64,000 nt of DNA from Chromera velia (taxonomy: Eukaryota > Sar > Chromeraceae). The notes under the pieces are model-generated. The model saw only the letters and a program-made list of their open reading frames with translations, had not been told where the DNA came from and did no database searches. Location of the stretch: positions 55,849-119,848 of the forward strand of contig JAHBMJ010000609.1 in NCBI GenBank assembly GCA_018398765.1, given 5' to 3'. The translations under genes and the position numbers were made by a program. Position 1 is the stretch's first letter. The number at the start of each line of letters is the position of its first letter. Shown here in pieces: positions 15,055-38,200 of the stretch.

Positions 15055-16473
15055 CTACTCCCCCTGCTCGATCATTGACAGCCCCTCCCGGAGCGTCTCG
15101 GAGGAATTCCCGGCGGACACCATGGAGACGGACAAATCGGCATAGTCCGCTTCAGCTCCAGTCTGCGTCACCGTCCGTTCGTCCCGCCTCCCACTGAGAC
15201 TGTCCCCTACTGATTGCCCTCCTGTCTCCAAATCCTTCCTCCCCTCCTTGCCCTTTCCAGAACCTCGTGTCTTCCGACTTCGACACAGAGTCATCAATTG
15301 GAGCAGAGGATCAGCCAGCATCCCACACAGAACTCCCAAAATTACCACAGAGAGACCCGACGCCTTCATTCCACTGAAAGGAATCGCTGGCCGCCCCAGC
15401 ACGGCCGGGGCAACGAACAGGTCCACAAGCACCGAAGAGGCCAACTGTCCGAGGACCTGAGAGCAAAACTCATTCGGGCAACTGTGTGCGTGTTTGTGTC
15501 TTCAACGAAGGTTTGATGGGATCAAAGCTGCAAAAAGGAACAGAATGGAGACCGGCACGCATGCAGAACAATGATATCGATATACACTCTGCAACACGCA
15601 CGGACGCACCTGCATCGAGAAGGTGATCACAGATCCTATGCAGTCGGGGCCTGATACGAGGACCATCACGGACACGACGCAGAACCCAAACACCCCTCCG
15701 AAAAACTTCCAGGCGTCCGATGCCACAGCCGTCTCTGCAGAGGGGGAGGGCTGAAGCATCAGAGCTACGCAAGTGATCACCGTTGCAGAGGTTGTGAAGT
15801 TGAAGGCGATCGCTCTCCACGGCGTTCCGAGGGAGGAACCCAAGCGACGGTTCAGAGCGGCTTGCACGACCAGTGCAGCACCAGCCAGGACACCCGCACC
15901 TGACAAACCAACAAATGCTCCTGCGCCCAGATCCCCCGTTCCACTTCTGATTGTCTCGTACTGGAACAGAACCGTACCGACAACCACCAACACTGCCCCT
16001 GCGCCCTGAGGGAGCTTCACTCCCTGCGGCCCCCCTGCAGCTGTGCAGGACCAGACGATCCCCGTGTAGTCAACGACCAGACTCATGCCGATTTGCCCGC
16101 AGACCACTGCCGTGAAGAAGGGCCCAAACCCAATCCAGGGGGGTACGAAAACCGCCGAACCAACAAAGACAAAGCCCAAAGCCGCAGGGAAAAGGGCGAC
16201 CCATTCGCATGAACCGGAGCGGACTGTCTCCCCCAGCTTCACAAACCCCGTCCAGAGTGTTCTGTCGTTCTTCTTGCTGGTCCAAAGGACCAGAGGGAAG
16301 GAAAGAAGGGCGGCGACCAAGTAGGAGACGGAGACGCCCCAAAGCGGGTCGCCCAGAACTCGCCCCGCCCAGATATTGCACACAGCCTGCAGAGGCAGCC
16401 CCCCCGCGGAAAGAAACGGGAGAAGCGAGATCAGAAAAATGTACAGCGGACTGAGTCTCTTCTGCTCCGTCAT
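15055..16473 (-). CDS. YdcZ/DUF606-like DMT-superfamily membrane transporter, 2 exons
   Basis: Predicted 421-residue multi-pass membrane protein. Exon 1 is 16473-15610 and exon 2 is 15456-15055, joined GT/AG in phase 0. About nine to ten hydrophobic segments fill residues 10-345. The N-half (GGLPLQAVCN) and C-half (VVQAALNRRLG) carry the same L-x-x-Q-A-x-x-N motif, the internal repeat typical of DUF606 proteins in the drug/metabolite transporter superfamily. The last ~75 residues are polar, with Lys/Arg/Gly, Asp/Glu and Ser-rich stretches, presumably a cytosolic tail absent from short bacterial members. It is divergent to the megasynthase gene, with 651 bp between start codons, so export of its product or import of a precursor is possible but only inferred. 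Substrate unknown. Confidence 0.75.
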
Positions 16474-17124
16474 CTGTCTAGCAAGCTTTCAAAAGCGCTG
16501 ATATGTGAAAAGCAGGACTGACTACAAACCAGAGACGCCTATATAGTCCGCCCATCGACGGTGCAGTAGGCCCCTGGCATTCCGAGCTAGATGTCCTGAA
16601 TGGACGCACCCACCCGATTGAAACCACTGCTTGATGCAAGGCAGGGAGATAAGAGAAGATGAGAGGTGATTGCGCGAGAGATGAAGCTTCAGGTGATGAG
16701 AGAGGTCCGGTTGCAAGAGTCATTTCCATCGATTCGCATGGGCAGGGGGCCACGTCGGATGCATTATTTTTCTTGCATGCATGCATGCATGCATGGGGCC
16801 CGCGTGCATGCTGATCGACGCCACAGCTCCGCGCGCTAAAGCAACAACATGCATGCAATCAAACAACACGCGCGCGCACATGTATTAATATATATGTTTC
16901 GATACGTATATACAAGCGTATATACGTACGTATAGATCGAATCGATCGTACTGTTGGAGCTCTTGTTGATAGCAGCGCCGGCTCCTCGTGCAGCATGTAT
17001 ATACACCTTTTAGTCGTCTGCGTCGATCCACAGAAAGGAAGTACTTTGATTCATTCCCTATACATCAACGGTAACGCTCAGTGACAACAGATACATACAT
17101 CCGTTGTTCTGGCTCTAGAACATC
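16474..17124. promoter_or_regulatory. divergent promoter region, transporter / megasynthase
   Basis: Head-to-head spacer of 651 bp. It contains an uninterrupted GCATGCATGCATGCATGCAT run near 16774-16794 followed by GGGGCCCGCGTGCATGC, further GCATGC sites near 16850, a CGCGCGCG patch near 16870, alternating TATA/CGTA sequence at 16885-16935, and GATCGAATCGATCG near 16937. The TGCATG cluster plus GGGCCC recurs in the other divergent promoter at 9376-10322. No transcription start can be placed by eye. Confidence 0.4.
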
Positions 17125-18915
17125 ATGGAGAAGCAAGCTGTTTCCGATTCCTGCGCTGAGAATTCGCCCGTCGACGGGGACCTTGCCAATCTCTGGGGGA
17201 AATACGGCAACTCTCCCTTCATTTCTCAGATCCAAAGACTCTCTCAGCAACTACCCGGTGACCCCGCGCTTTCTCTACTCGACGTAAATGCTCAAATCAA
17301 AAAGACGCTTTCCTTCGCTGAAATCTATCGAGATGTTGCCCGTCTCTCTGCCAGTCTTACCCAAACTCTCAAGCTGCGAAAGGGCGACAGAGTCATCCTT
17401 TGTTTTCCTCCTGGAGAAGGAGGAATGGAGTTCATCGTTTCCTTCTATGCGTGCCTCAGCGCGGGCATCGTTGCAGTGCCCGTCTACCCACCAGAGCCGA
17501 GCAAGGCAGCAGCTGACATAGATCGTTTCTGCGACATTTCAGCCGCTGCCGAAGCCCGCATATGCCTGACAAACACAGCATACAACCGTGTTGTAACTGT
17601 TCTTCGCACTCTGTCCGGAGACAAGAGGAAGGGGGACTTCACGTGGAGTTCAATCCAATTCGTTGTCTCTTCTGGGCTGATTGAGAACAGCCCCCTCAAA
17701 GTTAAAGAAGTAGACTCATTCCAACCTGCTCCAACCACCCCAAAGGATGTTGCCTTCCTCCAATTCACCTCAGGTTCCACATCAGCCCCGAAGGGAGTGA
17801 TGGTCACCCACGGGTCCTTGCTCCACAACATCCACCTAATCGTCCTCGTTTTCGGGTTCCACTCCTCCCTTGATGACCCAACAACTCACGAGAGCGCCAG
17901 AGACTTTGGGCTCTTTCGACTCGACGAATTCTTCGAAAAACGTCACTCAATCAGTCACAAGGCAAGAGGGCATCGAGTCCGCATCTTTTCGTGGCTTCCC
18001 TTGTACCACGATATGGGTTTGATTGCAAAGGTGTGTGCGCCTTTCTTCTTCGGCCTCCACCTGCTGTTGATGAGTCCTTTGGATTTTATCAGACGACCCC
18101 AGAATTGGCTTGTCGGGATGTCTACACACAAAGCAATCGTCTGTGCAGCCCCGAACTTCGCATTTGAGCTGGCGGTCAAGCGGACTGACGATACTGTCTT
18201 ATCGACTCTGAACCTCTCTCACGTCTGCGCTTTCGTCTGCGGCGCCGAGCCCGTCAGGGCAGCGACAGTAGACAGATTCGTTCAAAAGTTTGGGACTGCA
18301 GGGGTGATGAGATGGATGGTTGCCCCTGCTTTCGGTCTTGCCGAGAGCACTCTGATCGTAACAGGACGACCCAACGACTTCACGTCTGCCAGGGTGTTGT
18401 CGGTGGACGCAGATGTTTTGCGAGTGGAGGGTGAGGTGCGACTGAGATTGGAGGGCGGAGACGGTCCACACGAGAGTGGTAGGGGTAGGGATGGGGAAGG
18501 GGAGGTTGGGAAGGTCGTGCAGCTGGTTTCGTGTGGGAGAGCACCGGGGGGCGTTGAGGTGCGGATAGTAGATGCAGAGAAGACAGTGGAGGTCCCGGAA
18601 GGCCGTGTTGGCGAGGTGTGGGTGCTCTCTGATTCCAACGCTGCAGGGTACTTCGGTATAGATCTGGAAGAAAAGACTGAAGAGACCTTTAGGGGCCAGT
18701 GCAGACTTGTAGACGGATCAATGACAGCTGGGAATTACCTGAGAACAGGAGACAGCGGGTTTCTGTTGGAGGGGGAGTTGTACATAGTGGGCAGACTGAA
18801 GGACATGCTGATTGTGAGAGGAAGAAACTATTTCCCCCAGGTCTGTCTGTCTGTTTGTCTGTCTGCCTGCCTGCCTGCCTGCCTGCCTGTCTGCCTGTCT
18901 GCCTGTCTGGCTTGA

Positions 18916-18946
<31 letters not shown>

Positions 18947-19529
18947 AAGTCTGTCTGTTTGAAAGGCCCCCAACCCCATGTTGCTGATCTCTTCATGCAT
19001 GCCAGCACAGACGTGCAGCTGTGCCCTCTGCACTCTCTTTCTTCCTTCTTTCTGACGTTGTCTGAATGACAGCATGCCCTGTTCGGCAGCGAGCCCCGTT
19101 TTGATGGTCTTTGGATGTGTGTATGTGTGCCTGATATGGACTTGAGCGTTGGTGTCCGTCCATGTCTGCCTGCAGGACATCGAGGAGGCAGTTGAAGGAG
19201 TGGACGCTGTGCGGAAGGGCTGCTCTGTCTGCTTTCCTTTGGAAGACGCGGAGGGGGGGGAACGGGTGGGAGTCGCGGCAGAATTGAGGGACGAGGCGGT
19301 GGGTGGGGGGGGGAGCGGCTTCATGGGGTGGCTGTCTCGTTTTGGGGGGGGTTCCTCGGGGAGCAAGTTAGAGGCTGTCCGGAGGGAAATCGCTGGTGCA
19401 GTGGCAAGGAAAGTCGGGTTGAGCGTTCATCACATCTGGCTTCTGAAGGCGCGGCAGTTGCCGAAGACTTCTTCTGGGAAGGTTCGCAGAAGGATGACAC
19501 GGGATCTTCTGCTCTCGAATCAGTTGGAG
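17125..19529 (+). other. FAAL loading domain of the megasynthase
   Basis: Residues 1-690, exons 1-2. Adenylate-forming signature TSGSTSAPKGVMVTH near residue 215, then WLPLYHDMGLI, FGLAEST, RTGDSGFL, and GRLKDMLIVRGRNYFPQ running across intron 1 into DIE. The LYHDMGLI and RGRNYFPQDIE phrases are characteristic of fatty-acyl-AMP ligases, which pass the acyl-adenylate to an ACP rather than to CoA. A C-terminal lysine is present in the segment ending KTSSGKVRR. This suggests that a free fatty acid is the starter. Confidence 0.85.
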
Positions 19530-22500
19530 GTCAGCAGACGAAAGAGGAATTAACAAATTCTAAGACGTTCGTCGAATTGGGAGCGCTTTGTGAAAATTCA
19601 GTGACTGTCATTTTCTCGGGCACTGCTTTCTCCCTCTGCGCTACTTTTTTTCTTTAACCAACCCTCCACGTGGAGAGCTTGTAGGTGGACAGCCGTTTGG
19701 GCACTCGGTTTTCCTTCTGATGCTGCAGCGTCTGTCTGTCTGTCTGTCTGTCTATCTGAGTGCACCATTCTTTCCCTCCGTTTCCTTCTGGATTCTGCAG
19801 GGAGTGCTCGGTGATGGAGAGACTGAGGAAATCCCAGTCGATGTTATTGAAGTGAAGGAGACGGGGAAGGAAACGACAGAACCCTCCAGGGAAGAACAAC
19901 AGCCAAACATTCCACAGATCTTCCCTCCTCTCGCTCCATCACCCCTGCTGCAACCCTCTGCAGCACCCTCTTCCTCCTCCTTCCAGTCCGCTGCCGCGCC
20001 CCCACCCTCCGTCTCTTCAGCAGCGTCTCCGTCCAACCTCATGAGCCTAACCAGGGTTCAAGGGGGGCTACCTCCCTTCCCTTCCATTCCTCCCAGGCCG
20101 CGGGAGGCCGCTTCATTCGGCAGCCGCTCTCCAGGGGCGTCTCTATGGACCCATCAGACCACTCTGTCTCCTCCTCAGAGACGGGTGGGAAGCAGGGGGG
20201 GTGATATCTCCACAGAAGCAGGCAGCGGGGGGTTCCATCCTTCTGTTACAGACGACAAAGAGACACGAGAGGACCGAGAGGGGGGAGAAGTGTCAGAGGC
20301 AGCAGTCCGATGGAGAGAGACGGTGGAGGCTGCCGTTGATGCAGCTGCACGGAGAGTGGCTTTGCGGTCTGTAGAGGGAGAGAGTGGGGCAGCCGGTGTC
20401 TCTTTGCACGATGCGGGGGGGGATGGGAGAAGAGGAGTTTTGCATGAAGGCGCACAAGCGCAGATGAAGTTGGATGCAGATGTCCCTTTGCATGAATGCG
20501 GTTTCGACTCGATTGCGGCTGTTGAATTCTCTGAGGACCTCGGCAACACCCTGGGTCTCGAGCTGGAGCCGACTCTTCTTTTCGACTATCCAACGTTGAA
20601 CGATGTGATTGACTTTCTGTCACAGCAGTGGCATTCTGAAGGGGAAGGGGAAGGGGACGCTGTCGGGATCAAAAGCTGTGGGGATGGCAGGATTGCGGGG
20701 GGATTCGTGGAGACAAAATTGGATTTAAGTTCTGACGATGATGTGATTGCAATTGCTGGTGCTGCCTGCCGCCTCCCCGGAGGTGTGCGTTGTTTAGGAG
20801 ACTTTTGGGATTTTCTTATTGGAGGACGGGAGGGAGTGACGGATGTTCCCTCGTCTCGTTGGGCCCTGAACGAATTTTGGGACGAGGACCCAGACGCTCC
20901 AGGGAAGATGTACTGCCGGGGAGGGGGATTTTTAGAAGACGTCGATCTATTTGACAACGAGGCCTTTAGAATTAGCCGGGCGGAAGCAACAGCGATGGAC
21001 CCCCAGCAGCGACTTCTGCTTGAGATTGCTCTCGAAGCTTTTGAGTCGGGGGAAAGAATGAAAAAAGACCTCGAAAAACAGCATATCGGAGTTTTTGTAG
21101 GGTGCTGTGCAAACGATTGGCAGAGTTTGAACAGGATGGGGATTGGCGCTGCAAGAAAGGGAATCCAGGTTGTCTCGCCCCTCGTTGCTACGTCTGCAGC
21201 GAGTTCCATGCTTGCAAACCGCCTCTCCTATGTCTTTGCACTGAAGGGCCCTAGCTGGACCGTCGACTCTGCCTGCAGCTCTTCCCTCGTAGCTGTCGAT
21301 CAGGCGCGTGTAGAGCTGGAGCGCGGGACCTCCACTGCCACCCTGGCAGCGGGTGTCAATCTGGTGCTTGACCCTCTGGTATCAGTAGCCTTCTGCAAGG
21401 CGCGCATGCTGGCACCCGACAGTAGGTGCAAAGCGTTCGATGCCCTCGCTGATGGGTATGTGAGAGGTGAGGGGTGCTGTGCAGTTGTGATGGAAAAAGT
21501 AAGCGCTACTAACAGACGGGGGGGGAGGGTTTTGGGAATTGTGAAGGGGTCTGCAACGAATCACGGGGGGCGCGCCGCCTCCCTGACAGCCCCCAATTCC
21601 CATGCTCAGAAAGAAGTTCTGCAAGCAGCATTAGAGTCAGCCAAGGTTCCACCGTGGGACATCGCATTTTTAGAGGCGCACGGCACAGGGACTTCCTTGG
21701 GGGATCCCATTGAGCTGAGTGCAGTCAAACAGGTCTTTGGCCGGACGCGTTCCTCCGACAGACCCCTTTTCATTGGTGCCTTGAAGACCAACATCGGTCA
21801 CTTAGAGGGAGCTGCTGGCATTGCAGGCTTATTAAAGTTACTTCTTGTCTTGATACATCGACGTGTCCCTCCCAACCTCCACTTCACAACTTTGAACCCC
21901 AAGATTGACACCAAAGCCTTCAGTTTTGCAATTCCAATAGAACCGATCCCCGTACATCCCCGCCGTTCAGAAGACCGTCTACTTGGAGGGGTCTCTTCCT
22001 TTGGTTTTGGAGGTGCAAATGCGCATGTCGTCCTGGAAGAGGCCCCTCCGAGTGTTGCAGCACGCATTCCGTCTCCCTCAGACAGAAAAGAGTGGAATCA
22101 CAGCTCTTTCCCTTGGACTGTTTTAGACTCGACGACACATGAGGCACAGTTAATGGGAGGGAACAATAGGGGGGTAGAGAATGAGGAGACTTTGGACGAG
22201 CTCCGGGCAATGACGCCCGACCAGCTCAAAGAGCACGTAACGGCGGTGGCTGTGCAGACGGCAAGCCAGGTGCTCGGTCAGTCGGCGTCGGAGCTTCCCC
22301 CTCTGGACGCTCCTCTGCAAGAGCTGGGGATCGACTCACTGGGAGCGGTGGAGTTCCGAAATGAGCTGCAGGCAAAGCTGGGCGTGCGTCTTCCGGCAAC
22401 CGCCCTCTTTGACTATCCCACCTTGCACGAGATGCGAGAATTTATTTGCAGACTAGTAAACCACCCCGAGACAGCCGCAGTAACAACTTGGGAAGGTACG

Positions 22501-25500
22501 AACGCCGGGAGGGGGGCATTAACAAGGGGGGGTATCATGCAGGTTGGAGAAGAGGGGCAGGTTGGAGTTGTGGGTGTGTCGTGTCGTCTCCCGGGGGGGA
22601 GCACGAACCCTGAAAGATTCTGGGAGATGATGATGGGCAAGACGGACTGCATGTCGGAGGTCCCTTTGAGTCGTTGGAACAACGAGGCTGTGTACGACCC
22701 CGACCCGGATGCCAACGGGTGTCTGAACGTGCGTGAGGCAGCGTTCATCGAGGGCGTAGATCTGTTCGACAACGGGTTCTTCTCGATCTCCGCCGCCGAG
22801 ACCAAGTTCATGGACCCCCAGCAGCGGCACATGCTGGAGGTCGCGTATGAGGCGTTCTGTCATGCGGGGCAGAGTCGAGAGTCTCTTCTGGGGTCCGACG
22901 CAGGCGTCTTCATCGGCAACTGCAACAACGACTGGCTGTACGTGGGGACGTCGATTTCTTCCCGCGGAGGATCAGTTGGGAGTGCCCTGTCTGGCACAGG
23001 GGTGAATCCTGCACTTCTGTCCAATCGCGTCTCCTATTGCCTTGGCCTGAAGGGCCCCTCAATGACCGTGGAGACAGCCTGTTCGGCATCGCTGGTGGGA
23101 CTGGACAGTGGAATAAAAAGTCTGCGGCTGGGCGTTTCGTCCCTGTGCCTTGCGGGAGGCGTAAACCTCTTTCTTGCACCACAGGCATTCATTGCGTGCT
23201 GCAAGGCTCGCATGCTTTCAACTGATTCTCGCTGCAAGACGTTTGACGCTGCTGCCAATGGGTATGCGCGCGGAGAGGGCGTGGGAGCAGTGGTGTTGCA
23301 GCGCTTAGCAGAGGCACGTGCAGAGAAGAAGCCGGTGTTCGCGATCGTGCGTGGGTCGGCAGTGAACCACGACGGGAGGTCTGCATCTCTGACGGCCCCG
23401 AACGGGCCCTCTCAGCAAGACGTGATTCGTTCGGCTCTTCTGGACGGGGGCGTGAAGCCTTCGCACGTGTGCTATGTGGAGGCACACGGCACGGGGACAG
23501 CTCTGGGGGACCCGATCGAGGTCGGGGCACTGAAGGCTGTGTACGGTGTGGGTCGAGAGGAGTCGATGCCGCTGGTGGTGGGTGCGGTGAAGACGAACTT
23601 CGGGCATCTGGAGGGCGCTGCGGGTATCGCGGGGTTCATCAAGCTGGTTCTCGTGTTGGGTCAGCGCAGAGCCCCCCCGAACCTCCACTTCAAGCAGCTG
23701 AATCCCCACATCGACGTTGAAGGGTTTCCCGTGTTGATGCCGACGGAGGTGACGGCTTTGGGAGGGGAGAGAAGGGGGCGTAAGCTGATTGGGGCAGTTT
23801 CGTCTTTCGGCTTTGGTGGCACAAATGCTCACGTGGTGTTGGAGGAGGGAGACAGAGATGTTTTACTGATCAAGGAAGACAGAGGGTCGACAGATGAAGT
23901 CCCGCTTGTTCCGCGTCGGAAAGTGGCCTTCATGTTTACTGGCCAGGGGTCCCAGTACGTGGGAATGTGCAAGGGGCTGTACGACTCTGAAGAGGCGTTT
24001 CGTGTTGTGGTGGACCGGTGCGGGCGGCTGCTGGAAGAGAAGAATGAGTGGGACATTTCTCTGAGACAGCTTCTCTTCCCTTCCTCCGAAGCAGAGAAGG
24101 CAGCAGCAGAGGCAAAAATGCACCAGACACGCTTTGCACAGGTAGCGCTATTTGCAGTCGAGTGCGGTCTCTTGGCGCTCTGGCGGTCGAAAGGGGTTGA
24201 GCCTGATGTGGTGATGGGCCACAGTCTCGGCGAGTACCCCGCGGCAGTGGCGAGTGGGGTGATGTCTCTGGAGGACGGTCTGATCCTCGTCGCTCGGAGA
24301 GCTGAGGCGATGCAGGCAGCGCCTCCAAAGGACGGGGTGATGGCCGCCTGTCGAATGAGCGAAGAGGAGGTGTTGGAAGCCCTTGAGAGTCTGCAAAAGA
24401 ACAGCTCCAGCGGTACTGCACAGCTCCTGGCTGACGTGGCTGTGGCAGCCGTAAACGGTCCAAAGTCGATCGTGCTCGCTGGACCTCGGGGGGGCGTGGA
24501 AGCCTTGCTGAGTCATCTGGGGATGTCGACTCGTGCAAAGTTTCTTTCTGTGTCCCACGCTTTCCACTCTCCGTTGATGAGACCTGCCCGTGAGGGATTT
24601 GAACCCCTTCTTTCCGACACTGTGGGTCGACTTCGTGAGCCTTCTGAAGGTGTCACGCTGGTGTCGAGTGTCACAGGAAAGGCGGTGTCGCGGGGTGAGC
24701 TGACGGGAGCCGAACACTGGCTGTCCCAGATTGAGCGGCCTGTGAGGTTTCTGGAAGCTGTGCGGACGTGCGTGGAGATCCTGGGGTGTTCCATCGTTGC
24801 AGAGCTGGGACCGCAGCCGGTTCTCGTGAACATGGCCCGTTCGTGTGTCTCTGCGACACCTGCTGTCGCTTCGGCACAGTCAGCAGAGGTTGGTAGCTCA
24901 TCTGAAAAGGTTGCCCCAGAGAGCGTCAAGTGGCTGTCTTCGTCTCGTTTGCTGCCGACTGACACTGAATCCTTCGCTCGAGCGATGTCGGAGGCTGTGA
25001 GTCTTCTGCAGGAACCGTCTGAAGCTCCTGTCATCTCGAAGGCAGCGGACGCCTCGCAGCAGAATCGTAGCTGGGCTGTGCAATGGGCACGGCAGGCTTT
25101 CCCATTTGCACCCAATTCCCACCCGTTCGTTGGGAGGCTGCGTGAGGATGGCGAGGGGGGACGTGAGTTCCAGTCAGCCCTGCGAGCGGACGTCCACCGG
25201 CTGATCGACGACCATCAAGTGAAGGGAAAGGTGCTGATGCCGGGTGCAGGGTTTGTGGAGATGATGGCTGCGTGTGTGTCGGCAGGGCTGAAGGCCGCAG
25301 AGAGTTCGTCTTCATCTTCGTCTCCCTCAGAGTGGGCATGGGCAAGGGACAGAGGTGCGCTGGCGCCTTCGCCTGTGTGTCTAATGGATGTGGAGATTGA
25401 GCGTCCAATGGTGCTTCCTCTGTCGAGCGATGCAAGTGCCAGTGCACAAACTGAGTCTCGTCGGACTGTGGAGGTATCGTTGAGCAGTGGAAGAGACGTG

Positions 25501-28500
25501 ACGGTTCGGTCGCGTGTGGGTCTTCCGGGTTCGAGTTCGGGTTCTGGAGGTGCCGACGGAGCCGTGGCAGAAGAGGAAGAGGCAGAATGGGAGGTGCACG
25601 CACGTTGCAGCTTCGCGAATCCTTCAGGGTCAGAGGGCGTGGAGTTCGAGAGGGAGCAGGAGGATCTCGTGGGGCTCCGTGCGAGCATGGTGAAGGAAGA
25701 GCAATTTGATGCGAAGGAGATCTACGCGGCTGCATCCCGCCGTGGGTTGAGTTATGGTCCTCGTTTCCAAACGATGCGAGGTCTTTGGCGGGGGGGCACA
25801 GGAGAGAACAAAGAAAAGAAAGAGGAGGAGGCAGTCCTTGCTCTCCTTCAGCTGTCTGGTGATTCTGACTCCGGCAGTGCTGACGTCGACCGATCGTTCC
25901 GTCTGCACCCTGCGCTTCTCGATGGCGCTTTCCAGGCTGCAGGAGCACTGCTGACAAATAGTGAGCAGAGCTCGACTGGCAGCGATGCGATGTCTCGGGT
26001 GATGGTGCCTGTCTCCCTGGAAAGAGCTCTTGTTGGATGCCTGATGGCGACAGAATCAGAGGTGTTTGCACATGTGAAGCTCCTTGAGCATTCCTCAGAT
26101 TCAGCGACATTTTCACTGCGTCTGTGCACGGCCACCGGCCGCACAGTAGCAGAGATAACGAGACTTCAGGTGCGTCCGATCGATCTGAGAAGCCTCTCTG
26201 TTCCTCGGGGGCTTCTCTGGCAGGTGTCCTGGAAGTTCTTGTTCAATGCTGCAAACGGCGTCATGCTGCCATCAGAGACAGCTGACCATGAGGCATCGAC
26301 TCCCCACCCAACACAGAATCTGCTTTTCCTCAGCACCCCACCTCCACTCGTTGAGAAACTATTGCGGAGTCATCCGTCCTCAAAAGTGGTCCCTTTCGGT
26401 GGCATGCCGGACGGTATGAATCTGTTTCGTCTTCTCAGTGATGAACAATGGGCAGAGGTGCTGTATCTGGGGTCTCTCTCAGCTCGTGAATCGAGCAGTG
26501 AAGCATCAGACCCCGCCTCTGTGGTGTGGGAGTGCATTCAAGTACTGCAGGCACTGTCCTCCCCAGAGTGGCCGAAGGACCTCCCGCGACCGCGTGTGCG
26601 GCTTGTGACTGCGGGAAGTCAATTCTTCGACGATGGAAGCACAGTCAGTGAGATTGAGGGAGGTAAAGGTGTGAGCCCGTCCCCCCCGACAGGGTCACTG
26701 GCAGCAGCTCCTGTGCACGCAGGGGTGCTGGGTCTTGCCAGGACTGCAGGTCTGGAGCTGCAGGCGTCGGGGGTGCAGGTGGGGTCTGTGGACGTGGACA
26801 TGTCGAGGGGTGTGGGGGCGGGAGTAGCGGAGCTGGTGCAGATGATTGAATCAGAAGCAAGCCCGATGGAAAGGGCATCTTTGACTCGGTTTGAGTCAGA
26901 GATAGCCCTGAGGAAAGGCAAAGTGTTCGGTGCTCGTCTAATGCCGAGAAAGCCCTTCCAAGATGCGGCTGGGAGTCTGACAGCACAAACGTATCTGATC
27001 ACAGGGGGTCTTGGAGGTCTGGGTCTGGTGGTTGTGAATTGGCTTTTGGATGAAGGTGCGAAGCGTCTGGTGCTGGTGTCGCGGAGGTCCGCGCCTGACG
27101 CAGAGACGGCCGAGCGTCCAGAGATGCGTCGGTTGCAGAGAGCGGCAGCTGAGGGGACGGTGCAGGTGGAGGTGAGATCGTGCGATGTGTCTTCGGCCGA
27201 GAGCTGCGAGCGTCTTCTGGAGGGTGTATGTGGAGCCTCACTGGCAGGCGAGAGTCTGAAGCAGGGTGAGGGTGCTTTCGGTATCGTGCACGCAGCGGGA
27301 GTTCTTGCAGACGCGCAAGTGAAGGATCAGACAGAGGAGGGCGTTCGTCGGGTGTACGCTTCGAAGGTCAGTGAGTGGCTGGGTAGGGGATTGAGAGAGC
27401 GATGTATGCATGGGAAGTGTGAGAGGAAAAATATGTTGCTTGTACATGATCCCTTGTCAATGCATGGTCATTATTTAATTTTCTTTGCCGTCTGCTTGTT
27501 TCCTGCCAGGCTGCCTTTTGTCTCCTTTTGTCTCTCTTGTGCTTGGTGGGTGGATGCATACACAAATACAGATGAATGTTCACTTGCGTATGTGCTTGAC
27601 TGTTTGTAGGCAACCGAAGCCTGGAACCTCCACAGAGCGCTGCAGCATCAGGGACTAGAGGACAGGTTGGAGTCTTTTGTGATGTTCTCTTCTTCGTCCT
27701 CCCTGCTGGGCAACTTCGGGCAGGCCAACTACAGTGCCGCCAACGCCGCTCTGGATGCGCTGGCGGCCTTCCGCGTGCGGGCGGGCCTGCGGGCAGTGAG
27801 CATTCAGTGGGGTCCCTGGGAGGAGCAAGGCATGGCTCCAAGCGTTCTGGGGGCCTACCATCTTGGCGGTCTTGTGGGTCTAAGCAACGAAGTTGGGCTC
27901 CGAGTGCTGGGTGACGTCACGCGTGCGTCACTGTCCTCCGTGACAGTCCCAGTTGTTGGGTGTCAGCAGCTGAAGTGGAAGGCGTTCATGAGACGGTACG
28001 ACGAGCCCCCTCCTTTCTTTGAGGAGGTGCGAAAACTCGTGGTTTCCTCATCCGCTACCGGCCCGTCAGCCGAGGTGCAAAATTTGCTTCGGATGATGTC
28101 TACTGAGCAGCTGAGGGAGCATGTGAGGGGCGTGGCACTTCAGACGATGAGCCAGGTCCTTGGAATGTCACCCTCGAGGTTGCCTCCCCTGGACACGCCC
28201 CTGCAAGAGTTGGGGATTGATTCCCTGGGGGGAGTGGAGATGCGAAACGAGTTACAGGACAGGCTTGGAGTGCGAATTCCCGCAACTGCTGTTTTCGAGA
28301 ACCCAACAATGGAAGGAATGATCGAATTCATCTGCAAACTGCTCAAAGATCAAATCAATGCAGGGACCGGAGAGGGCAGGCCGGCCGAAGAGGATAGAGG
28401 GGAACCAACTGAGGAGTCCCCCTCTCTTCGCCTGCACCGGGCAAGAGAGGCGGCTCACGGTTTCCATCCTCTTGACGACGTTGAGTCTCTGCGCAACGAA

Positions 28501-30291
28501 TTGTCCTTTGACGTCTCTGTTCTGCATCCCCCCACGCCTGCCGTCAGGGTACGGAATGTGCTCCTCACTGGAGTCACTGGGCTTGTGGGCCGATTCCAAC
28601 TTAGCGCTCTTCTTGAATCAAAGGCATGTCCTACAGTCAGAGTGCACTGCCTCGTTCGGGCGCCCGATCAACGGGCGGCAATGCAGCGCGTCAGAGATGC
28701 ACTACGGGAAGCCAAAATTTGGAAACCATCCTACGAATTCCGCATTGTTGCTGTGCCTGGCGACTTCGGCCTTCCTCTCCTGGGTCTCTCCGAAGAAGAC
28801 TTCGACCGTCTGTGCAAGCAGATGGACAAAGTGTACCACACCGGAGCGGATGTGAGCCTGATGGGCTCATACTCCCGCTTGCGAATTCCAAATCTGGTGG
28901 GCGTGAAGGATGTCATCAAGCTCTGCACGACACACAGACTGAAGCCTCTCCACTTCGTTTCCACTCTCGCGATGTGGCCTGCAGTGTTTGCTCTCTTCAG
29001 TCGAGAGTTTGCAGGACGCACAATTCCGGAAGACGGAAGCGTCCCTGACCCTGCGGAGATGCAGAAGCACTTCCCTCCCGATGTTGTTGGATATCCCTGG
29101 ACGAAGATGACGGCTGAGTGGCTTCTCCAGAGAGCCAAGGAGCTCGGCTTGCCAATAGCGATCTACAGGCTCCCGAGTCTGTTTCTCGCATGGGAGTCGG
29201 GATATACGAACACAAGCAAAGGAGACTACGCAGCTGCCCAAGCGATCGCCTCGATCCAGGAAGGCTGCTTCCCCATCGGGGTCTCTGGAGCTCCGTTCAC
29301 TCCAGTGGACACAGTCGCGCAGATGATAGTCAGTCCTTTCGTTCTGTGTTTTGTTCCGTTTGCGGAGAGACGTAACACAAGCACTTAACTGGAAGTCTTT
29401 GGTTTTTGGTTCTTTCTCGTCTTGTCCATTTCATTCTCTCCCTTGATGCATCATCCAGGAAGGGATATCGAGCTTCGTAACGCTTTGTCTCGGATGCCTT
29501 TTCCTACTGCCCTGCCGGACGCTAGTGTTTTCTTTTCGTTCTGTTCTCTGCAACTTTTCTCACCAATAGACATACCTCCCAGATCAGAACTGAGTATGTT
29601 GTTTTGTCCATTTTCTCACTTGCGCAACAAAATGCAGGTCGAGGCTTCCCTTCTCGACAAGCGGCTCCACTGGATGTACCACCTGATGAACACCAGAACG
29701 TTCACAGGGAAGGAACAGGAGAGATGGGCACAGTCCCTCGGGCTGTCTCTGAAGGCAAAGCCGATCGAGGAGTTTGAAGAGGCCATCTTGAAGAGGCAAT
29801 CCGCAATGGCGAAGTTTCTTCCAATGATGCAGGTGGGTCGGTCGGTTGGTCTGCAAATCGGCTGAATGTCCGCTAATCGGATGTCTGTGGTTTTTTGTAG
29901 AACTCTCGACGCCGGCAACAGAGAGCTTGTTTGATTGAAGCACGAGGGAGGCACACCGAGTTGTCAAAGTCGATTGTGTCCATGTGTTTGTTGTGGATAG
30001 TGATTCATTGTCACCTTTTGTGCGTTGGTGAATGAATGCTTGCAGTACTGGCGGCGGTACTGGTTCCACATCGACAAGGAGACGGAGGAACGGAGAGCAC
30101 CTCTACCTGTGATGAACAGGAACATCTTCGAGGACCTCCCGCACATGAGGTGGCCATCTGGGGAGGAGACGCTGACAAACTCGTGAGTGGAAGGAGTGAA
30201 GGACAATTTCCTTTCGTGTTTCTTTCATCTGGTCACTTTCTTCATTCTCTTGTTCTTCTCTTTGTAGCATCGCGCTACATCTACACAAAGA

Positions 30292-30336
<45 letters not shown>

Positions 30337-32680
30337 AGAACCTCTTGGGAATTGACACTGAGTGTACCTGAATGCCTGCCCGGCTCTTCATATCTCTTCC
30401 ATTTCCCGACCCCCTGCATCCATAACTCCATGTCTGTCCCTCTGCCTGCCCGCCTGTCTGTTTCTGCAGATTCATCTACTGTTGCCAGAACCACCTGTAC
30501 CCGTCAAACTCCCTGGCTCTGTCTCTGACCCCCGAGTCAGTGGTGGACAACGCAGCCCGGGGACTGGCGGCCTGTGGAATTGACGGCCCCAGATTGCCCG
30601 AGTGGATCGATACCGCAGACGCAGAAGCTCTCCGTAGGAGCGGGTCCGACTTGGAAGATGCAGACACACTCGAACAGACGCCAAGTTTCATGCCTGCACT
30701 CGCACGTCTCTGTGAGGCAGCGACTGCGGACAAATCGGAAGAGGCCTCGGCAGAGGCTTCTCAAGGCAGCGCCGCCCTTTCTTCTATCAGCCCGGCATTG
30801 AGGTTGAGTTTTCAGGGTCGTTTCTCTCTGTTGACAAAGGCCCGGCAGATGGTCATGAATTTGATGTTCCTTGCAGAGGCAGAGAGAAGGTACCCCGAAA
30901 TCAGGAGCGTCGATGTGGCACCTCCGATTGTGATCATCGGAGTGGCCAGAGTGGCTGGGCAGATTCTCTGCAGAGTTCTGGCTGAGGACCCGCAGAATTG
31001 TGCGCCTGCATTCTGTGAGATGGCAGCTCCATATGGGGCAGACGGAATCTACCTGCAGCTCCTTGATCGTCCGAAAGAGCTTCAGGCGGTTGCACCGAGT
31101 GGGTGTGGGTGGGGGTTTGGTCACAACAGGACGGAGGCCTTGAGGGATCCTCGCACCCGGTTCGCGCGTGAGCAACTCGAATTCATCCACGGTCGGGCCT
31201 CCTCTCGAGACGGGGAGGCAGACTGGCAACGTCTGAAACTTTTCGGCCCCACTCTCGCAGATGAGGTTGGTTAGTCTGTCTGCTCGATGTTGGAGGTCCC
31301 TGAATAGGCTTTTCCCCCATAGATCCATGGAAGAGAAATTCTTTGTCGATTTCACGTTGCAAGTGACGCTCTCTCTTGTCAGACAGGCCACTGTTCTGTT
31401 TTCATTTCTTAAAAGACAAGCCAGACGTTGTTGAGCTTTTGCAATCATTTTGTCGATCAAACTCTTCTTTCATTCCCTTCTCTCGGAGACCTTTGTTTGG
31501 CTCATTTTGCGATTGCAGGACAGCATGATCCTCGATCACTCCTTCAGGACGCTCTCCTTCGCTCTTGCCTTTGGGGTTCCTGAGTATAGGAACTGGTTGA
31601 AGGAGGGTGAGTGCCTCGAGCTACAGAAGGTCTACCGTCTCCACAGACGGTTCCTCCAACATCTGCAGTGGCAGAGGTCTCAGCGAGTGGGGGAGAAGGG
31701 GAGGGCTGGAGGGCCCAAGAAGTCCAAGAGCGTTGTGGCACGGCTGGGCTCCAAGCTCGGCCTTGCGGGAGGAGACACACATGTGTCTGCCTCTGCCTCT
31801 GCAGCAGCGGCTCGGGGTCCAGGAAAACAGGGACCGGAAGGAAAGACAAGAAGAGACCCTTCAGAACTACAGCAGCAGACAGGAGGAGGGGGAGGTCCCC
31901 AGCGGTGGGTTCTGAAGAGTCCCTACCATGCGGCTTCCTTGGGCGCTCTGTTTGAGGAATACCCGGATGCAACTGTCGTCTGTGTGCACAGGTCAGCCGG
32001 CCAAAGGAAAGAGACAAACGAAACATTTAGAATGCCCGGTTTCTTGTTTTGCGCTCTCTTCTGTATGAGTCGGATGTTTTTTGCGTTTTAATGTCTGGAT
32101 CACGCTTCCTAACAATTTTGCATTTACCTCTGCTCTCAGAGATTTGACGGCCGAAGCGACGGAATGGGCGACGACGGCCCTGACACTTCGGCGGGGTCTC
32201 TTCGAAGGAGGGCAGAAGGCGCCGGAGAGCACAGGGAGGGAGGAGCTGGACACGTTGAGACTCCTCGAAGCGTCCCTGCAGAAGTATCGACAATCGCATC
32301 CCGAAAGAAGAGAACAGTTCATCGATGTGGACTTCGAGGACGTCATGAGGAATCCACTCGCAGTGACAGAGAAGATCTACAAACAGCTGAACCTCACCCT
32401 TTCCAAGCGAGCGAAGACGCAGATGGGAGAGTACCTAAGTGAGTTGAGACCATTGAAAGACGAAATCATCAGCAAGAGAGTGGGGGACGGGGACAGTGAG
32501 GAAACACTCTCGAGAGTCCGTCTCTCGAAGGAGATAGTCGCAAATGCATTTTCTGACCTCGACAGTTGGAATCGAAATCAAGAAGAGGGCAGAGAGGGGG
32601 ACGCGAACACAGGGGAGGGCCGTGCCCGTTCCTCTTCAATTCGGGGTTCCTGGTCTCGCATGCTGTCGGGACTCAAGTGA
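17125..32680 (+). CDS. multidomain FAAL-PKS-thioester reductase-sulfotransferase megasynthase, 9 exons
   Basis: Predicted ~4,498-residue type I polyketide/fatty-acid synthase. Exons: 17125-18840, 19176-19529, 19801-27366, 27610-29328, 29638-29832, 30046-30182, 30470-31265, 31519-31991, 32140-32680; GT/AG throughout, and phases sum to one frame ending in TGA. Domain order with approximate residues: FAAL 1-690; ACP1 860-970 (S927); KS1 1004-1443 (C1182, H1317, H1357); ACP2 1489-1580 (S1536); KS2 1610-2040 (C1784, H1919, H1959); AT 2062-2377 (S2165); DH 2463-2820 (H2495, D2731); KR 2830-3336 (Y3253); ACP3 3373-3459 (S3417); NAD(P)-dependent thioester reductase 3528-~3850 (Y3707, K3711); sulfotransferase-like 3920-4435. 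No ER, methyltransferase or thioesterase is visible. Expected role is to adenylate a fatty acid, extend it, and release it reductively. The two halves could be mis-joined only at introns after 29328; the matching phases argue against that. Confidence 0.88.
18841..18950 (+). repeat. (TCTG)n / (CCTG)n microsatellite at the 5' end of intron 1
   Basis: Tetranucleotide repeat on the sense strand that starts exactly at the GT of the splice donor (gtctgtctgtctg) and extends ~110 bp with tctg and cctg variants. A shorter block of the same unit lies near the acceptor of intron 2 (19731-19756). Confidence 0.9.
20311..22470 (+). other. ACP1 and AT-less extension module (KS1-ACP2)
   Basis: ACP1 carries the phosphopantetheine serine in GFDSIAAVEF (S927). 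KS1 has an intact triad: Cys in DSACSSSL (C1182), His in EAHGTGT (H1317) and His in NIGHLEGAAG (H1357). It is followed directly by a ~45-residue linker and ACP2 (GIDSLGAVEF, S1536), with no acyltransferase, reductase or dehydratase between. The extender unit must come from the AT of the next module or from a separate enzyme, or else KS1 does not extend. Confidence 0.85.
22558..28350 (+). other. extension module KS2-AT-DH-KR-ACP3
   Basis: KS2 is intact (C1784 in ETACSASL, H1919, H1959). The AT has GHSLGE (S2165) and a HAFH motif at 2276-2279, the pattern of malonyl-specific ATs. The DH has H2495 in the H-x3-G-x4-P motif DHQVKGKVLMP and D2731 in LLDGAFQ. The KR has TGGLGGLG from residue 3091, and FSSSSSLLG plus QANYSAAN (Y3253) after intron 3. 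The intron at 27367-27609 splits the KR just after the YASK lysine. ACP3 carries GIDSLGGVEM (S3417). Expected chemistry is malonyl extension, ketoreduction and dehydration to an enoyl thioester. Confidence 0.87.
28555..29832 (+). other. thioester reductase release domain
   Basis: An NAD_binding_4-type short-chain dehydrogenase fold follows ACP3. It has the nucleotide loop TGVTGLVG (residues 3532-3539), HTGADVSLMGSYSRLRIPNLVG, an HFVSTLAMW strand with the catalytic Ser/Thr, and Y-x3-K in GYPWTKMTAEWLL (Y3707, K3711), then IYRLPSLF. Exon 5 (29638-29832) adds a helical C-terminal piece. Such domains reduce the ACP-bound thioester to an aldehyde, sometimes on to an alcohol. This replaces the usual thioesterase. 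Confidence 0.82.
30292..30331 (+). repeat. (AC)n microsatellite in a megasynthase intron
   Basis: About 19 AC units, nearly uninterrupted, within the intron 30183-30469 between the reductase and sulfotransferase-like regions. Confidence 0.9.
30540..32480 (+). other. C-terminal sulfotransferase-like domain with altered PAPS loop
   Basis: Residues about 3920-4433 follow the Sulfotransfer_3 layout: a GL-x-D-G helix region, PPIVIIGVARVAGQ (4047-4060), Y-R-N-W-L, HRRFLQHLQW, RWVLKSPYH (K4294, S4295), then EEYPDATVVCVHRD (R4319). The 3'-phosphate-binding half (LKSP...HRD) is conserved. The 5' loop, normally G-x-x-R-[ST]-G-[ST]-T, reads G-V-A-R-V-A-G-Q, so PAPS binding may be lost or changed. A low-complexity Gly/Ser/Ala/Lys insert of ~70 residues separates LQW from the LKSP strand. 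Confidence 0.75.
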
Positions 32681-34323: not shown

Positions 34324-34708
34324 TCACTGCGCGTTCAGGCAAAACCCCACATGTGCAGCTGAGTGTACAGCTATCTTTGCAACATCCTCGTGTTCAGTAG
34401 CGAGGTTCTTCAATCCGCAATCTGCAGGCAGACATACAAAGGATAAATCTGATATGGGCACTCGAAAGTACTGCAATCGGGGAAACCATTTCACGGGGAA
34501 GCGTGCTTGTCCGCTCATGCGTGCACCCCTGGCGCTAAGCAGATAGAGATGCCCAATCATAGCAAATCGGGGAAAAGCCCGGACCTTTTCTAAACATCTG
34601 CCCCTCCAACGACATTTATCCGATCCAACAAATTTGGAGACAGTCAGACAGACAGACAGACAGACGGACAGGACAGACGGACAGAAACACGGACAGACAG
34701 ACAGACAG

Positions 34709-34742
<34 letters not shown>

Positions 34743-34757
34743 GAGACAGACGGACAG

Positions 34758-34797
<40 letters not shown>

Positions 34798-34827
34798 GGA
34801 CAGACAGACAGACAGACAGACAGACAG

Positions 34828-34900
<73 letters not shown>

Positions 34901-34901
34901 G

Positions 34902-34933
<32 letters not shown>

Positions 34934-34941
34934 GGACGGGC

Positions 34942-34974
<33 letters not shown>

Positions 34975-34975
34975 G

Positions 34976-35022
<47 letters not shown>

Positions 35023-35148
35023 CAGACAGACAGACAGACAGACAGGACAGACAGACAGACAGACAGACAGCCAGACAGACAGGACAGACAGACAGGACAG
35101 ACAGACAGACAGACAGACACACAGACACACAGGACAGACAGACAGGAC

Positions 35149-35179
<31 letters not shown>

Positions 35180-35194
35180 GAGACAGACAGACAG

Positions 35195-35238
<44 letters not shown>

Positions 35239-35239
35239 C

Positions 35240-35271
<32 letters not shown>

Positions 35272-38200
35272 GGCAGGACAGACAGGATAGACAGACAGAC
35301 AGACAGATCCGACCCACCATTGAGGTCAAGCATCTTTAGTCGTCTGAGCCCCTTGAGACTTGCCCCCAGAGACTTCCACCCAGCGATGCCGATACTTGAA
35401 TTGCCTGCACCGCAGGAGGAAGGCGGCGACACCATGAAAAGACAACAAGCCTTATGTATGTACTGTGCTATCATTCAGCGCAATTTGCAGAGAGCTTGCA
35501 TTAGCGACAACTCACTCAGAAGATCCAATTCCTCATCTGTGTTGCTTTCAAAGAGACACACGCTCCCAAACGGAAGGCTCCTCTTCTTACTGTCAGTGAC
35601 GCACTCGCAAAAGGAGACTCAGAGTCTCACGCACTCCCCCACTGACCCTGAATGTCCAATTCCTCCAGCAAGGCCGGAAGCGACGGGAAGAGTTGCTCGA
35701 CAATCTCGTCATTTAGAGCGCACTCTGCAACCGAATGACGAAGAAACATTCGCAACGGTAATGCCACTCAGGTGATATACACTCGAAGCCCGAGGGAAAG
35801 AAAGAAGGCATTCTCTCCCACCCTCTCCACAAGCTTCGGGCATGCGCATGCAGAGACTGACAGAGACCCCCCACCCCTGACATCACCCGACTCTTCCCCA
35901 AACATCCCCCTGACCACTCAGGTTCAGCTTCTTCAGACGTTCGAGGCTCTTCAGACGCACTCCCAGAGACTTCCACCCAGCGATGCCGATACTTGAGTTG
36001 CCTGCACCGTAGCAGTCAAAAGTACACAATAAACCTGACGCAACAGCAATCGGCGAAAAGAAAAAGATAGGACTGCGCACCGATATGCACTCAGTGCATC
36101 TTCTCATACACGAGCCGCCTGCCTGCTGGTTTTCGCACCTTCTTCAAAATTGAACAAGGGAGGATCGAAGCACTCGATCGTGTCTCACCACGGGCTCTAA
36201 CTCCACGTGCTCGGAGTTGTAGTACCCCTAGCTGCCCCACACGAAACCTCGACTTCTGCCCCATTCCCTTCAGCTGGAATCATGAAGACCTTGAAAAGAA
36301 CGTTGACCATTGACTCTCAAGGCCCACCTCATTTATTCCCCCCCCCCCCCCCAAAAAAAAACACACTCTTGTCTTTTTTTTTCCTTCAGAAAACCGAACA
36401 GAAGCCGACTGAAATCAAGAACGGCCGACTAACAATGAAAATCCACTTCCTCGAGCGTGTCCGGAAGCAATGGGAAGAGGTGATAGAGATGGGGGAGCAC
36501 CGGCGTGCTTGTGAAACTCAGCAAATACGCACAAGCTGCAAATAAGCACGCAATGAAGCACGTGTAACCATTACCACGGATACACTTACAGGCCCATTGC
36601 AAATAACTGGCAGCGTTCTCTTCTGTCAACCTTACAGGGTCCCAGGAACGCAAGGCGCCTGCAGAAGGCCAGGCCAACGAACAAGTAAACGCTCCAGACT
36701 CACCTCTTCTAGCGGCAACGCTTTGTTCCCTGACCCACTGGTATTACAGACACAAATAAATGCTCGACTTACTGGAAAGATCAAGCTTCTTCAGATGTTT
36801 AAGGCTCTTCATACGCGCCCCCAGTGCCAACCACCCGGCCTTGCAGAGATGGGCACCGCCTGCACACCGACATGCAGGGGTTAACAACAATTTATTCATG
36901 CGACAATTATTAATAGAACAACGAACCCAGCTAGCCCACATCGATTCACTGAGCTTTGATGCATTGAAGCACAATCTCATGGCGCAACAGACAATTCGCT
37001 CACGACGGTGTGCATGAGCAAACCCCGTACTCTGCCTTTAGACACGCTGAAGAAAGAGTGAAGAGACTTCGCACGACTCGGGGTCGCTTAAAATGACTTT
37101 CCTTTCTATACCCTTCCGCTGTACCGTCGAAGAGATCGACCAGGCGAATACGAACCTCGAACAGACAACTCCTCGAGCGTGGTCGGGAGCGATGGGAAGA
37201 GACTTTCCACCTTCTGATCATACAGTGTACACGCTGCAGACAATTAAACAGACTATGAATTTATATGGGTGACATGCGTCTACGTAGGAGCCCAACTGAA
37301 GGAACGCATTGTCTCCGCACGCAAAGGGAGGCCCACAACGACTCAGAACAGCTGGCAAAAGTACAGTCAAGACTCCTTTCGCCCGAGAAAAGGCGTTTCT
37401 CCCCTGAGGCCGTTGCAGGAATGCAGACCAGACTGGCAGGACTCGTAAAGTCAACTGATCCATTCCATCTTCTCGTCCTCGTCAAACCCAACCAAGTTGC
37501 AAACACACGTTCCTGACTGCTAACCCGCATCTACAAATACCTTTCGCACACTGGCTGGTCGTCGTTGAGGAAGGCCATGCATCTACATGTATTCGCAGAC
37601 AGAGACAACCCCTCAGACTGACAGTTGAGGTTCAGCTTCTTCAGTTGTTCGAGGCTCTGCAAACGCGCCCCGAGAGACGCCCATCCTTCGGGACCGATAC
37701 GAGGGTTCTCTGCAGGACGACATACATCCAACGAAACGAATGCGTCCAGCGTGCCTCTGAGCCATGCACTGTTCCTTGATCACAGCATCATGATTGCACG
37801 GCATGTATGAGACGGTGCGCCACCTGCAGGCCTCAGGCTACACATGGGCTGATGGGTCAATTCTCCACGTGCGACCTGTAGACAGACCGGATGGATCGTC
37901 CTTGTGCAGTCTACCTCGAAGCCTCATTTTTCACACTATCCGAAGCAGCCACGTCGACAATCAAAAAATGCATTTGCAAGCGATCGACAACTGACCCGCA
38001 AGATCCAAATCTTCAAGCGCCAATGGAATTGATGGGAAAAACTGTTCGACCTTATCGTTTGTCAGCGTGCAATCTGCATGCATGCAAAGAGACCACCCAC
38101 GCAACATCCAGTCGGAGCTCAAGTCATCCTTTCCGGACGCATCCGGTTCCCGACTTTCAAATCAGTCTAGAAGCTTCTTTCCTCTCGGTAACGCCTAGAT

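What the first reader, a model, noticed from the sequence alone, without database searches (positions are those of the whole stretch)
17125..32680. FAAL-loaded PKS fused to both a thioester reductase and a sulfotransferase-like domain
Seen: domain motifs in the order FAAL, ACP, KS, ACP, KS, AT, DH, KR, ACP, reductase, sulfotransferase-like, all on exons whose phases join. Known: cyanobacterial olefin synthases combine FAAL-ACP-KS-AT-KR-ACP-ST-TE, where ST and TE drive decarboxylative chain release. Inference: here a reductase replaces the thioesterase and sits before the ST, so the end product could be an aldehyde, an alcohol or a sulfated lipid rather than an alkene. I know of no described eukaryotic enzyme with this exact order.
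Basis: partly seen in the sequence, partly recalled or inferred. Interest (0 to 1): 0.88.

Follow-up and report, generated by a model that had tools for sequence, protein, structure and literature searches.

The report
Lipid megasynthase with altered sulfotransferase tail
A single giant Chromera enzyme appears to pick up a fatty acid, lengthen it and release it by reduction; its tail is a sulfotransferase-shaped domain that has lost the usual sulfate-donor signature but is still conserved by selection.

Summary

The interpretation needs changing. The nearest kin is not the cyanobacterial olefin synthase but the reductase-terminated type I FAS/PKS of apicomplexans and chromerids, which end in a reductase-sulfotransferase (R-ST) cassette. 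Eighteen of 18 hits of an ST-scored search carry both domains (its length filter excluded proteins under about 578 aa). Sixty bacterial loci match, 47 with a complete R-ST ORF. A 2013 paper (PMC3908369) named this SwfB, noted two coccidian relatives and suggested a primary sulphate.

New here: the PAPS-loop motif is lost in 5 of 5 Chromera and 4 of 4 Vitrella rows, but intact in 50 of 50 bacterial and 13 of 13 rows labelled apicomplexan. The nine chromerid rows form one clade. The motif-less domain is under purifying selection in both usable pairs (Ka/Ks 0.049, 0.167).

So this gene most likely releases an aldehyde or alcohol and carries a conserved pseudo-sulfotransferase. A sulfated product is unlikely here but plausible in coccidia.

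The parts
17125..32680 (+). whole gene, nine exons, 4498 aa (A0A0G4FTC3)
17125..19529 (+). FAAL loading domain (exons 1-2)
   Evidence: AMP-binding 183.6 bits on exon 1; leading NCBIfam models are fatty-acid--AMP ligases, below their cut-offs
20443..20640 (+). ACP1, GFDSIAAVEF (boundaries mine)
   Evidence: three PP-binding stretches; motif and mapping
20737..22062 (+). KS1 with Cys-His-His; no AT, KR or DH before the next KS
   Evidence: two KS stretches; motifs; groups with KS of P0002 and P0008
22243..22455 (+). ACP2, GIDSLGAVEF
22552..23850 (+). KS2 with Cys-His-His
23926..24858 (+). AT, GHSLGE and HAFH (malonyl type by recalled rule)
25120..26181 (+). DH, HxxxGxxxxP present
   Evidence: PF21089 and PF14765, motif
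26989..27825 (+). KR, split by intron 27367-27609
   Evidence: PF08659 179.7 bits spliced
28105..28359 (+). ACP3, GIDSLGGVEM
28558..29832 (+). thioester reductase R, TGVTGLVGR and GYPWTKM (exons 4-5)
   Evidence: PF07993 169.8 bits; motifs
30046..30902 (+). stretch between R and the PAPS loop, probably the N-terminal part of the STF-type sulfotransferase
   Evidence: homologous in Chromera paralogues and other R-ST tails; the corresponding part of P0142 (166 to about 314) lies inside the range 133-632 aligned to STF9
30924..32401 (+). sulfotransferase-fold core without canonical PAPS motifs
   Evidence: Sulfotransfer_3 63.6 bits; 2zq5 E 2.5e-15
30930..30968 (+). former PAPS 5'-phosphosulfate loop, VIIGVARVAGQIL
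31984..32176 (+). former 3'-phosphate site, VHRDLTAEATEWATT, across intron 31992-32139

Best explanation
This is a chromerid member of the apicomplexan/chromerid reductase-terminated type I FAS/PKS family. FAAL activates a fatty acid as acyl-AMP and loads it on ACP1. KS1/ACP2 (an AT-less pair, probably served by the single AT or used only to pass the chain on) and then KS2-AT-DH-KR-ACP3 extend it by one or two C2 units, leaving an alpha,beta-double bond. The R domain releases the chain from ACP3 with NAD(P)H as an aldehyde or primary alcohol. The C-terminal STF-type sulfotransferase domain belongs with R to an old R-ST cassette; on the chromerid branch it lost the canonical PAPS-binding motifs and was kept as a probably non-sulfating domain with a structural, chain-guiding or regulatory role. 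Shown: gene, domains, motif states, kinship, purifying selection in two paralogue pairs. Inferred: every catalytic step, chain length, loss of sulfation, and the role of the ST-fold domain.
Against: The loop arginine is kept in 5/5 Chromera copies, K-x-P-x-H in 3/5 and HR of the 3' site in 3/5; this gene keeps all three, so unusual PAPS binding is not excluded. The Chromera loop is itself conserved as R[AV]AG[SQ] (5/5), which could be a new donor site rather than a dead one. Only two of ten paralogue pairs were unsaturated in both R and ST, and in C819/C727 Ks differs threefold along the gene (linker 0.43, R 0.68, ST 1.42). P0005 and P0142 of Vitrella are 91% identical and may be one gene, so rows are not independent. 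The quick tree left one Vitrella row outside. No structure of the window's own domain was made. No transcript or product data.
Confidence: 0.7

Rival explanations
1. The ST domain is still a PAPS-dependent sulfotransferase with a diverged loop, and the enzyme releases a primary alkyl (alkenyl) sulfate: R makes the alcohol, ST sulfates it.
For: R-ST order fits alcohol then sulfate, as PMC3908369 proposed for SwfB. Purifying selection on ST. This gene keeps the loop arginine, K-x-P-x-H and HR. Motifs intact in coccidia and bacteria, so this may well hold there.
Against: The G-[TS]-[TS] of the loop and the 3'-site serine are lost in 5/5 Chromera copies; C3391 and C510 also lost the K of K-x-P-x-H, C819 and C727 the HR.
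Confidence: 0.17
2. Olefin-synthase-like release: ST sulfates a beta-hydroxyl and the chain leaves by decarboxylative elimination as a terminal alkene.
Against: No thioesterase listed; a DH that should remove the beta-hydroxyl; a reductase instead; ST fold nearest STF1/STF9, not OLS/CurM ST (relative's model); PAPS motifs lost.
Confidence: 0.04
3. The ST-fold domain is simply decaying and has no role.
For: Motif loss in all nine chromerid rows.
Against: No internal stops in five Chromera copies, and Ka/Ks 0.049 and 0.167, near those of the neighbouring R domain.
Confidence: 0.09

Closest known systems
Cryptosporidium parvum CpFAS1 / apicomplexan type I FAS and PKS (PMC2995488)
   Same: Acyl ligase-ACP loading unit, KS/AT/DH/KR/ACP domains, terminal reductase with a C-terminal extension that the paper found only in apicomplexan FAS/PKS
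   Different: CpFAS1 has three modules with ER; here one DH-KR module without ER plus an AT-less KS-ACP pair. Whether the CpFAS1 extension is an ST was not tested here (no Cryptosporidium sequence reached)
R-ST tails of Toxoplasma, Eimeria, Cyclospora, Cardiosporidium, Gregarina and Rhytidocystis (P0003, P0132-P0134, P0137, P0122, P0141, P0004, P0006, P0135)
   Same: R directly followed by STF-type ST; BLAST alignments to the last 810 aa of P0003 run over nearly the whole tail
   Different: Their PAPS-loop motif is intact, this one's is not
Bacterial SwfB, R + ST, with SwfA PKS/FAS (PMC3908369)
   Same: Same R-ST cassette; a KS lies upstream on the same strand in 48 of 51 loci with 8 kb upstream, the fused ones included, and four loci have PKS module and R-ST in one ORF
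   Different: SwfA KS is a separate clade from alveolate KS; no FAAL match in the four fused ORFs; PAPS motif intact in 50/50
Chromera P0002 (A0A0G4HR60, contig C3391)
   Same: Same FAAL-ACP-KS-ACP-KS-AT-DH-KR-ACP-R-ST order
   Different: Weak ADH_N match between DH and KR (20.9 bits, cut-off 23.5); HSSLHA instead of K-x-P-x-H
Cyanobacterial olefin synthase and CurM
   Different: ST then TE there; here R then ST and no TE; different ST subfamily by fold of a relative

Membership tests
Apicomplexan/chromerid R-terminated type I FAS/PKS | Acyl ligase + ACP loading unit at N-terminus | tested here: met
Apicomplexan/chromerid R-terminated type I FAS/PKS | C-terminal R with TGxxGxxG and GYxx[ST]K plus a C-terminal extension shared with apicomplexan R domains | tested here: met
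   extension homologous to T. gondii and Eimeria
Apicomplexan/chromerid R-terminated type I FAS/PKS | KS domains group with those of alveolate FAS/PKS | tested here: met
   12 alveolate KS rows one clade, 100/100, in a 41-row tree; one of the 12, P0008, is counted as alveolate only by its kinship
Apicomplexan/chromerid R-terminated type I FAS/PKS | Complete KS-AT-DH-ER-KR-ACP elongation modules as in CpFAS1 | tested here: not met
   no ER match; first KS-ACP pair lacks AT, DH and KR
Swf-type R-ST protein | R followed contiguously by ST | tested here: met
Swf-type R-ST protein | Canonical PAPS loop in ST | tested here: not met
   ARVAGQ against NRTGTT
Swf-type R-ST protein | Partner KS of SwfA type | tested here: not met
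   SwfA KS (13 rows) a separate clade, 100/100
PAPS-dependent sulfotransferase | Sulfotransferase homology and fold | tested here: met
   homology: 63.6 bits PF13469 and 2zq5; fold shown only for Vitrella relative P0142
PAPS-dependent sulfotransferase | 5'-phosphosulfate loop motif and 3'-phosphate Arg...Ser | tested here: not met
PAPS-dependent sulfotransferase | Sulfotransferase activity | not testable with these tools
   needs an enzyme assay
Cyanobacterial olefin synthase | ST followed by thioesterase at the C-terminus | tested here: not met
   ST is last; no TE family among the matches at E 0.001
Cyanobacterial olefin synthase | ST of the OLS/CurM subfamily | tested here: inconclusive

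The most novel reading that the evidence does not exclude
An R-ST release cassette, shared with bacterial Swf systems, built reductive-then-sulfating chain release into the FAS/PKS of the apicomplexan/chromerid ancestor, so that coccidian FAS enzymes release primary alkyl sulfates. On the chromerid branch the ST half was converted once, under selection, into a non-sulfating domain (new loop R[AV]AG[SQ] in Chromera) with a new role in holding, gating or transferring the reduced product: a pseudo-sulfotransferase inside a megasynthase.
Probability: 0.35. Interest if true: 0.72.

Novelty: new variant of a known kind. Interest (0 to 1): 0.52.

Why it matters
[quoted passage not shown] Seeing the same position, in coccidia and chromerids, as an STF-type sulfotransferase that keeps its motifs in the parasite sequences examined and lacks them in their photosynthetic relatives gives a direct test: look for primary alkyl sulfates in coccidia and their absence in Chromera. 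It also offers a natural set of motif-less and intact versions of one megasynthase domain, and a bacterial stand-alone version that should be easier to express.

Tried and rejected
Rejected: gene split between R and ST (exon phases, database protein, fusion kept in relatives). Rejected: KS and R-ST acquired together from a SwfA-SwfB operon, since alveolate KS nest among ordinary bacterial PKS rows and not with SwfA (the comparison PKSs came from an R-based search, so the sampling is narrow). Disfavoured: a separate unknown linker domain between R and ST; in the Vitrella model it lies inside the range aligned with STF9 (which gives first and last aligned residue only; 2zq5 aligns from 222).

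Led nowhere: whether CpFAS1/CpPKS1 carry the ST could not be tested; no hit list bore a Cryptosporidium name. GHVN and GHVP transcriptomes were not identified (searched one paper). A whole-genome search for further R-ST copies with an intact motif did not complete, so five Chromera copies is a lower bound. The quick tree with motif columns (47 rows) left Vitrella P0145 and P0008 outside the chromerid clade; the careful tree without motif columns (36 rows; P0146 dropped for its long branch, 40 of 50 bacterial rows left out) put all four Vitrella rows inside and P0008 outside. A rough ORF caller found a KS-bearing ORF directly upstream in only 26 of the 47 loci with a complete R-ST ORF (42 of them with 2 kb upstream); tblastn gave 48 of 51 with 8 kb upstream, L032, L062 and L075 being without. 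Ka/Ks was saturated in R or ST or both in eight of ten pairs; single-region values there were 0.18-0.36. The 18 of 18 depend on its filters: proteins of about 578-1837 aa sharing exact words, so short free-standing sulfotransferases could not appear. Nine neighbouring ORFs gave no sign of a biosynthetic cluster.
Full report
WHAT WAS CHECKED. The finding claims one eukaryotic gene at 17125-32680 with the order FAAL, ACP, KS, ACP, KS, AT, DH, KR, ACP, reductase, sulfotransferase-like. Splicing nine exons by GT/AG sites gives 13,497 bases, one terminal stop, 4498 residues. A protein search returned a 4498-aa Chromera velia CCMP2878 protein, A0A0G4FTC3, identical to my model in every letter. The genome is therefore that of C. 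velia or a very near relative; its 177.8 Mb is near the 187.5 Mb listed for C. velia in PMC7073580 (passage). PMC7464705 (section 10 and passages seen) lists two C. velia KS proteins of 4498 aa, Cvel_3424 and Cvel_3734; which of them is this gene I did not establish.

DOMAINS. Full-length Pfam: AMP-binding 41-510, two KS (best stretch 1610-1862), AT 2067-2375, DH (2464-2581 and 2657-2817), KR 3087-3284, three PP-binding, NAD_binding_4 3531-3785, Sulfotransfer_3 4048-4406 at 63.6 bits (cut-off 27). No ER or TE family appears at E 0.001. FAAL models lead the NCBIfam list for exon 1, below their cut-offs. Catalytic motifs are present in FAAL, all ACPs, both KSs, AT, DH, KR and R (motif rules recalled). 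The KS1-ACP2 pair has no AT of its own.

THE TAIL RECURS. In the same genome the R-ST tail is at C608 (the window), C3391, C727, C819 and C510 (C510 is absent from the ST family hits and was seen by tblastn). C3391 encodes P0002 with the same full order; C819 encodes P0121, 6729 aa, the length of Cvel_19857, which PMC7464705 lists as a type I FAS. Searching R to ST, the best 8 of 127 hits carry both domains; of the other 112 listed none has both, and one, a Spirulina PKS (P0107), has ST without R. Searching long proteins with R alone, 5 of 17 have ST. Scoring the Toxoplasma inter-domain and ST part, 18 of 18 hits carry R and ST, within its length and word filters. Sources include Toxoplasma, Eimeria, Cyclospora, Cardiosporidium, Gregarina and Vitrella; GHVQ and GHVS are Rhytidocystis transcriptomes (PMC7522995, passages).

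BACTERIAL FORM. Three hits (P0147-P0149) are free-standing proteins of 803-843 aa. A scan of GTDB genomes found 60 loci out of 154 pattern matches; 47 of 60 hold a complete R-ST ORF, and in four of these R-ST is fused behind a PKS module in one ORF of 3179-3198 aa with KS, AT, DH-like, KR, R and ST matches and no FAAL match. 48 of 51 loci with 8 kb upstream have a KS on the same strand, the fused ones included. PMC3908369 (passages) described this as swfA/swfB/swfC in sponge symbionts, said SwfB resembles the last two domains of two coccidian type I FAS, and suggested a primary sulphate; its authors saw no new metabolite from the entire cluster in E. coli. PMC2995488 (parts 1 and 2 of 3 read) described the CpFAS1 R region of about 780 aa whose C-terminal half was found only in apicomplexans and without motifs; by position and by the kinship of the coccidian sequences this half is probably the ST, but no Cryptosporidium sequence was tested here.

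LOSS OF THE PAPS SITE. Over 77 aligned R-ST rows (27 eukaryotic or eukaryote-like, 50 bacterial) the loop motif R[ST]G[TS][TS] is intact in bacteria 50/50, rows labelled apicomplexan 13/13, metagenome 4/5, Chromera 0/5, Vitrella 0/4. Loop plus the 3'-site Arg...Ser: 50/50, 12/13 (P0134 has a gap there), 4/5, 0/5, 0/4; the 3' site alone is intact in one Vitrella row (P0138). Three of the 13 rows (P0139, P0144, P0146; GHVN, GHVP) are from transcriptomes whose species I could not name, and rows are not all independent genes (P0005 and P0142 are 91% identical). In a 36-row tree without the motif columns the nine chromerid rows are one clade (98/99) and the motif state changes twice, the other change being P0008. 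An earlier quick tree placed P0145 outside. All five Chromera rows form one clade at 100 in both trees. Against a simple dead-enzyme reading: this gene keeps the loop Arg, K-x-P-x-H and HR.

STILL SELECTED. Nei-Gojobori Ka/Ks: ST 0.049 against R 0.089 and linker 0.217 for C819/C727; ST 0.167 against R 0.118 for C3391/C510 (linker saturated). The other eight pairs were saturated in R or ST or both. In C819/C727 Ks differs along the gene (linker 0.43, R 0.68, ST 1.42), so the ranking of regions is not to be pressed. No internal stops occur in the ST parts of the five copies. So the domain is conserved although the donor-site signature is gone.

EVOLUTION OF THE KS. In a 41-row KS tree the 12 alveolate rows (P0008 counted among them) form a clade (100/100) nested with ordinary bacterial PKS rows, and 13 SwfA rows form another (100/100). 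The R-ST cassette is thus shared while the KS is not. KS1 of this gene and of P0002 group with the KS of the FAAL-bearing P0008 (92/87). P0008, an unnamed protein from the 'lgn' source, reads FAAL-ACP-KS-AT-DH-ER-KR-ACP-R-ST.

MECHANISM. FAAL loading, one or two C2 extensions, an alpha,beta-unsaturated intermediate, reductive release to aldehyde or alcohol; then a probably non-sulfating ST-fold domain. Domain presence, motif state, kinship and selection are shown; substrate, number of extensions, aldehyde or alcohol, and the ST-fold role are inferred.

NOVELTY. Acyl-ligase-loaded, R-terminated FAS/PKS and the R-ST pair are known. I found no paper on the chromerid ST or its motif loss: searches; 'sulfotransferase' occurs 0 times in the main texts of PMC7464705 and PMC4501334. 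The library lacks most subscription papers and preprints. PMC7073580 (passages) mentions an ST in an Emiliania PKS, so ST domains in eukaryotic PKSs are otherwise known.

Noticed in passing
15505-16488 (-): ORF of 328 aa matching DMT_YdcZ (PF04657, 95.7 bits), described as a putative inner membrane exporter, just upstream of the PKS gene
   Followed up: partly
7969-8535 (-): Open stretch matching RPE65 (PF03055, 96.7 bits; carotenoid oxygenase family by recall)
   Followed up: no
10224-10637 (+): Open stretch with the start of a protein kinase domain (PF07714, 33.4 bits)
   Followed up: no
18841-18950 and about 34600-35300: CTGT/ACAG-type tetranucleotide repeats that read as open SVCL / RQTD frames; the first lies in intron 1 of the PKS gene
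   Followed up: no
L054, L056, L058, L066: Bacterial single ORFs of 3179-3198 aa joining a KS-bearing module to R-ST, in MAGs labelled Saprospiraceae (two), Williamsia and Streptosporangiaceae; their habitat was not checked
   Followed up: partly
L016-L075: Matches to R-ST spread over MAGs labelled Alpha- and Gammaproteobacteria, Gemmatimonadetes, Acidobacteria, Rhodothermales, Spirochaetaceae, Nitrospira and others
   Followed up: partly
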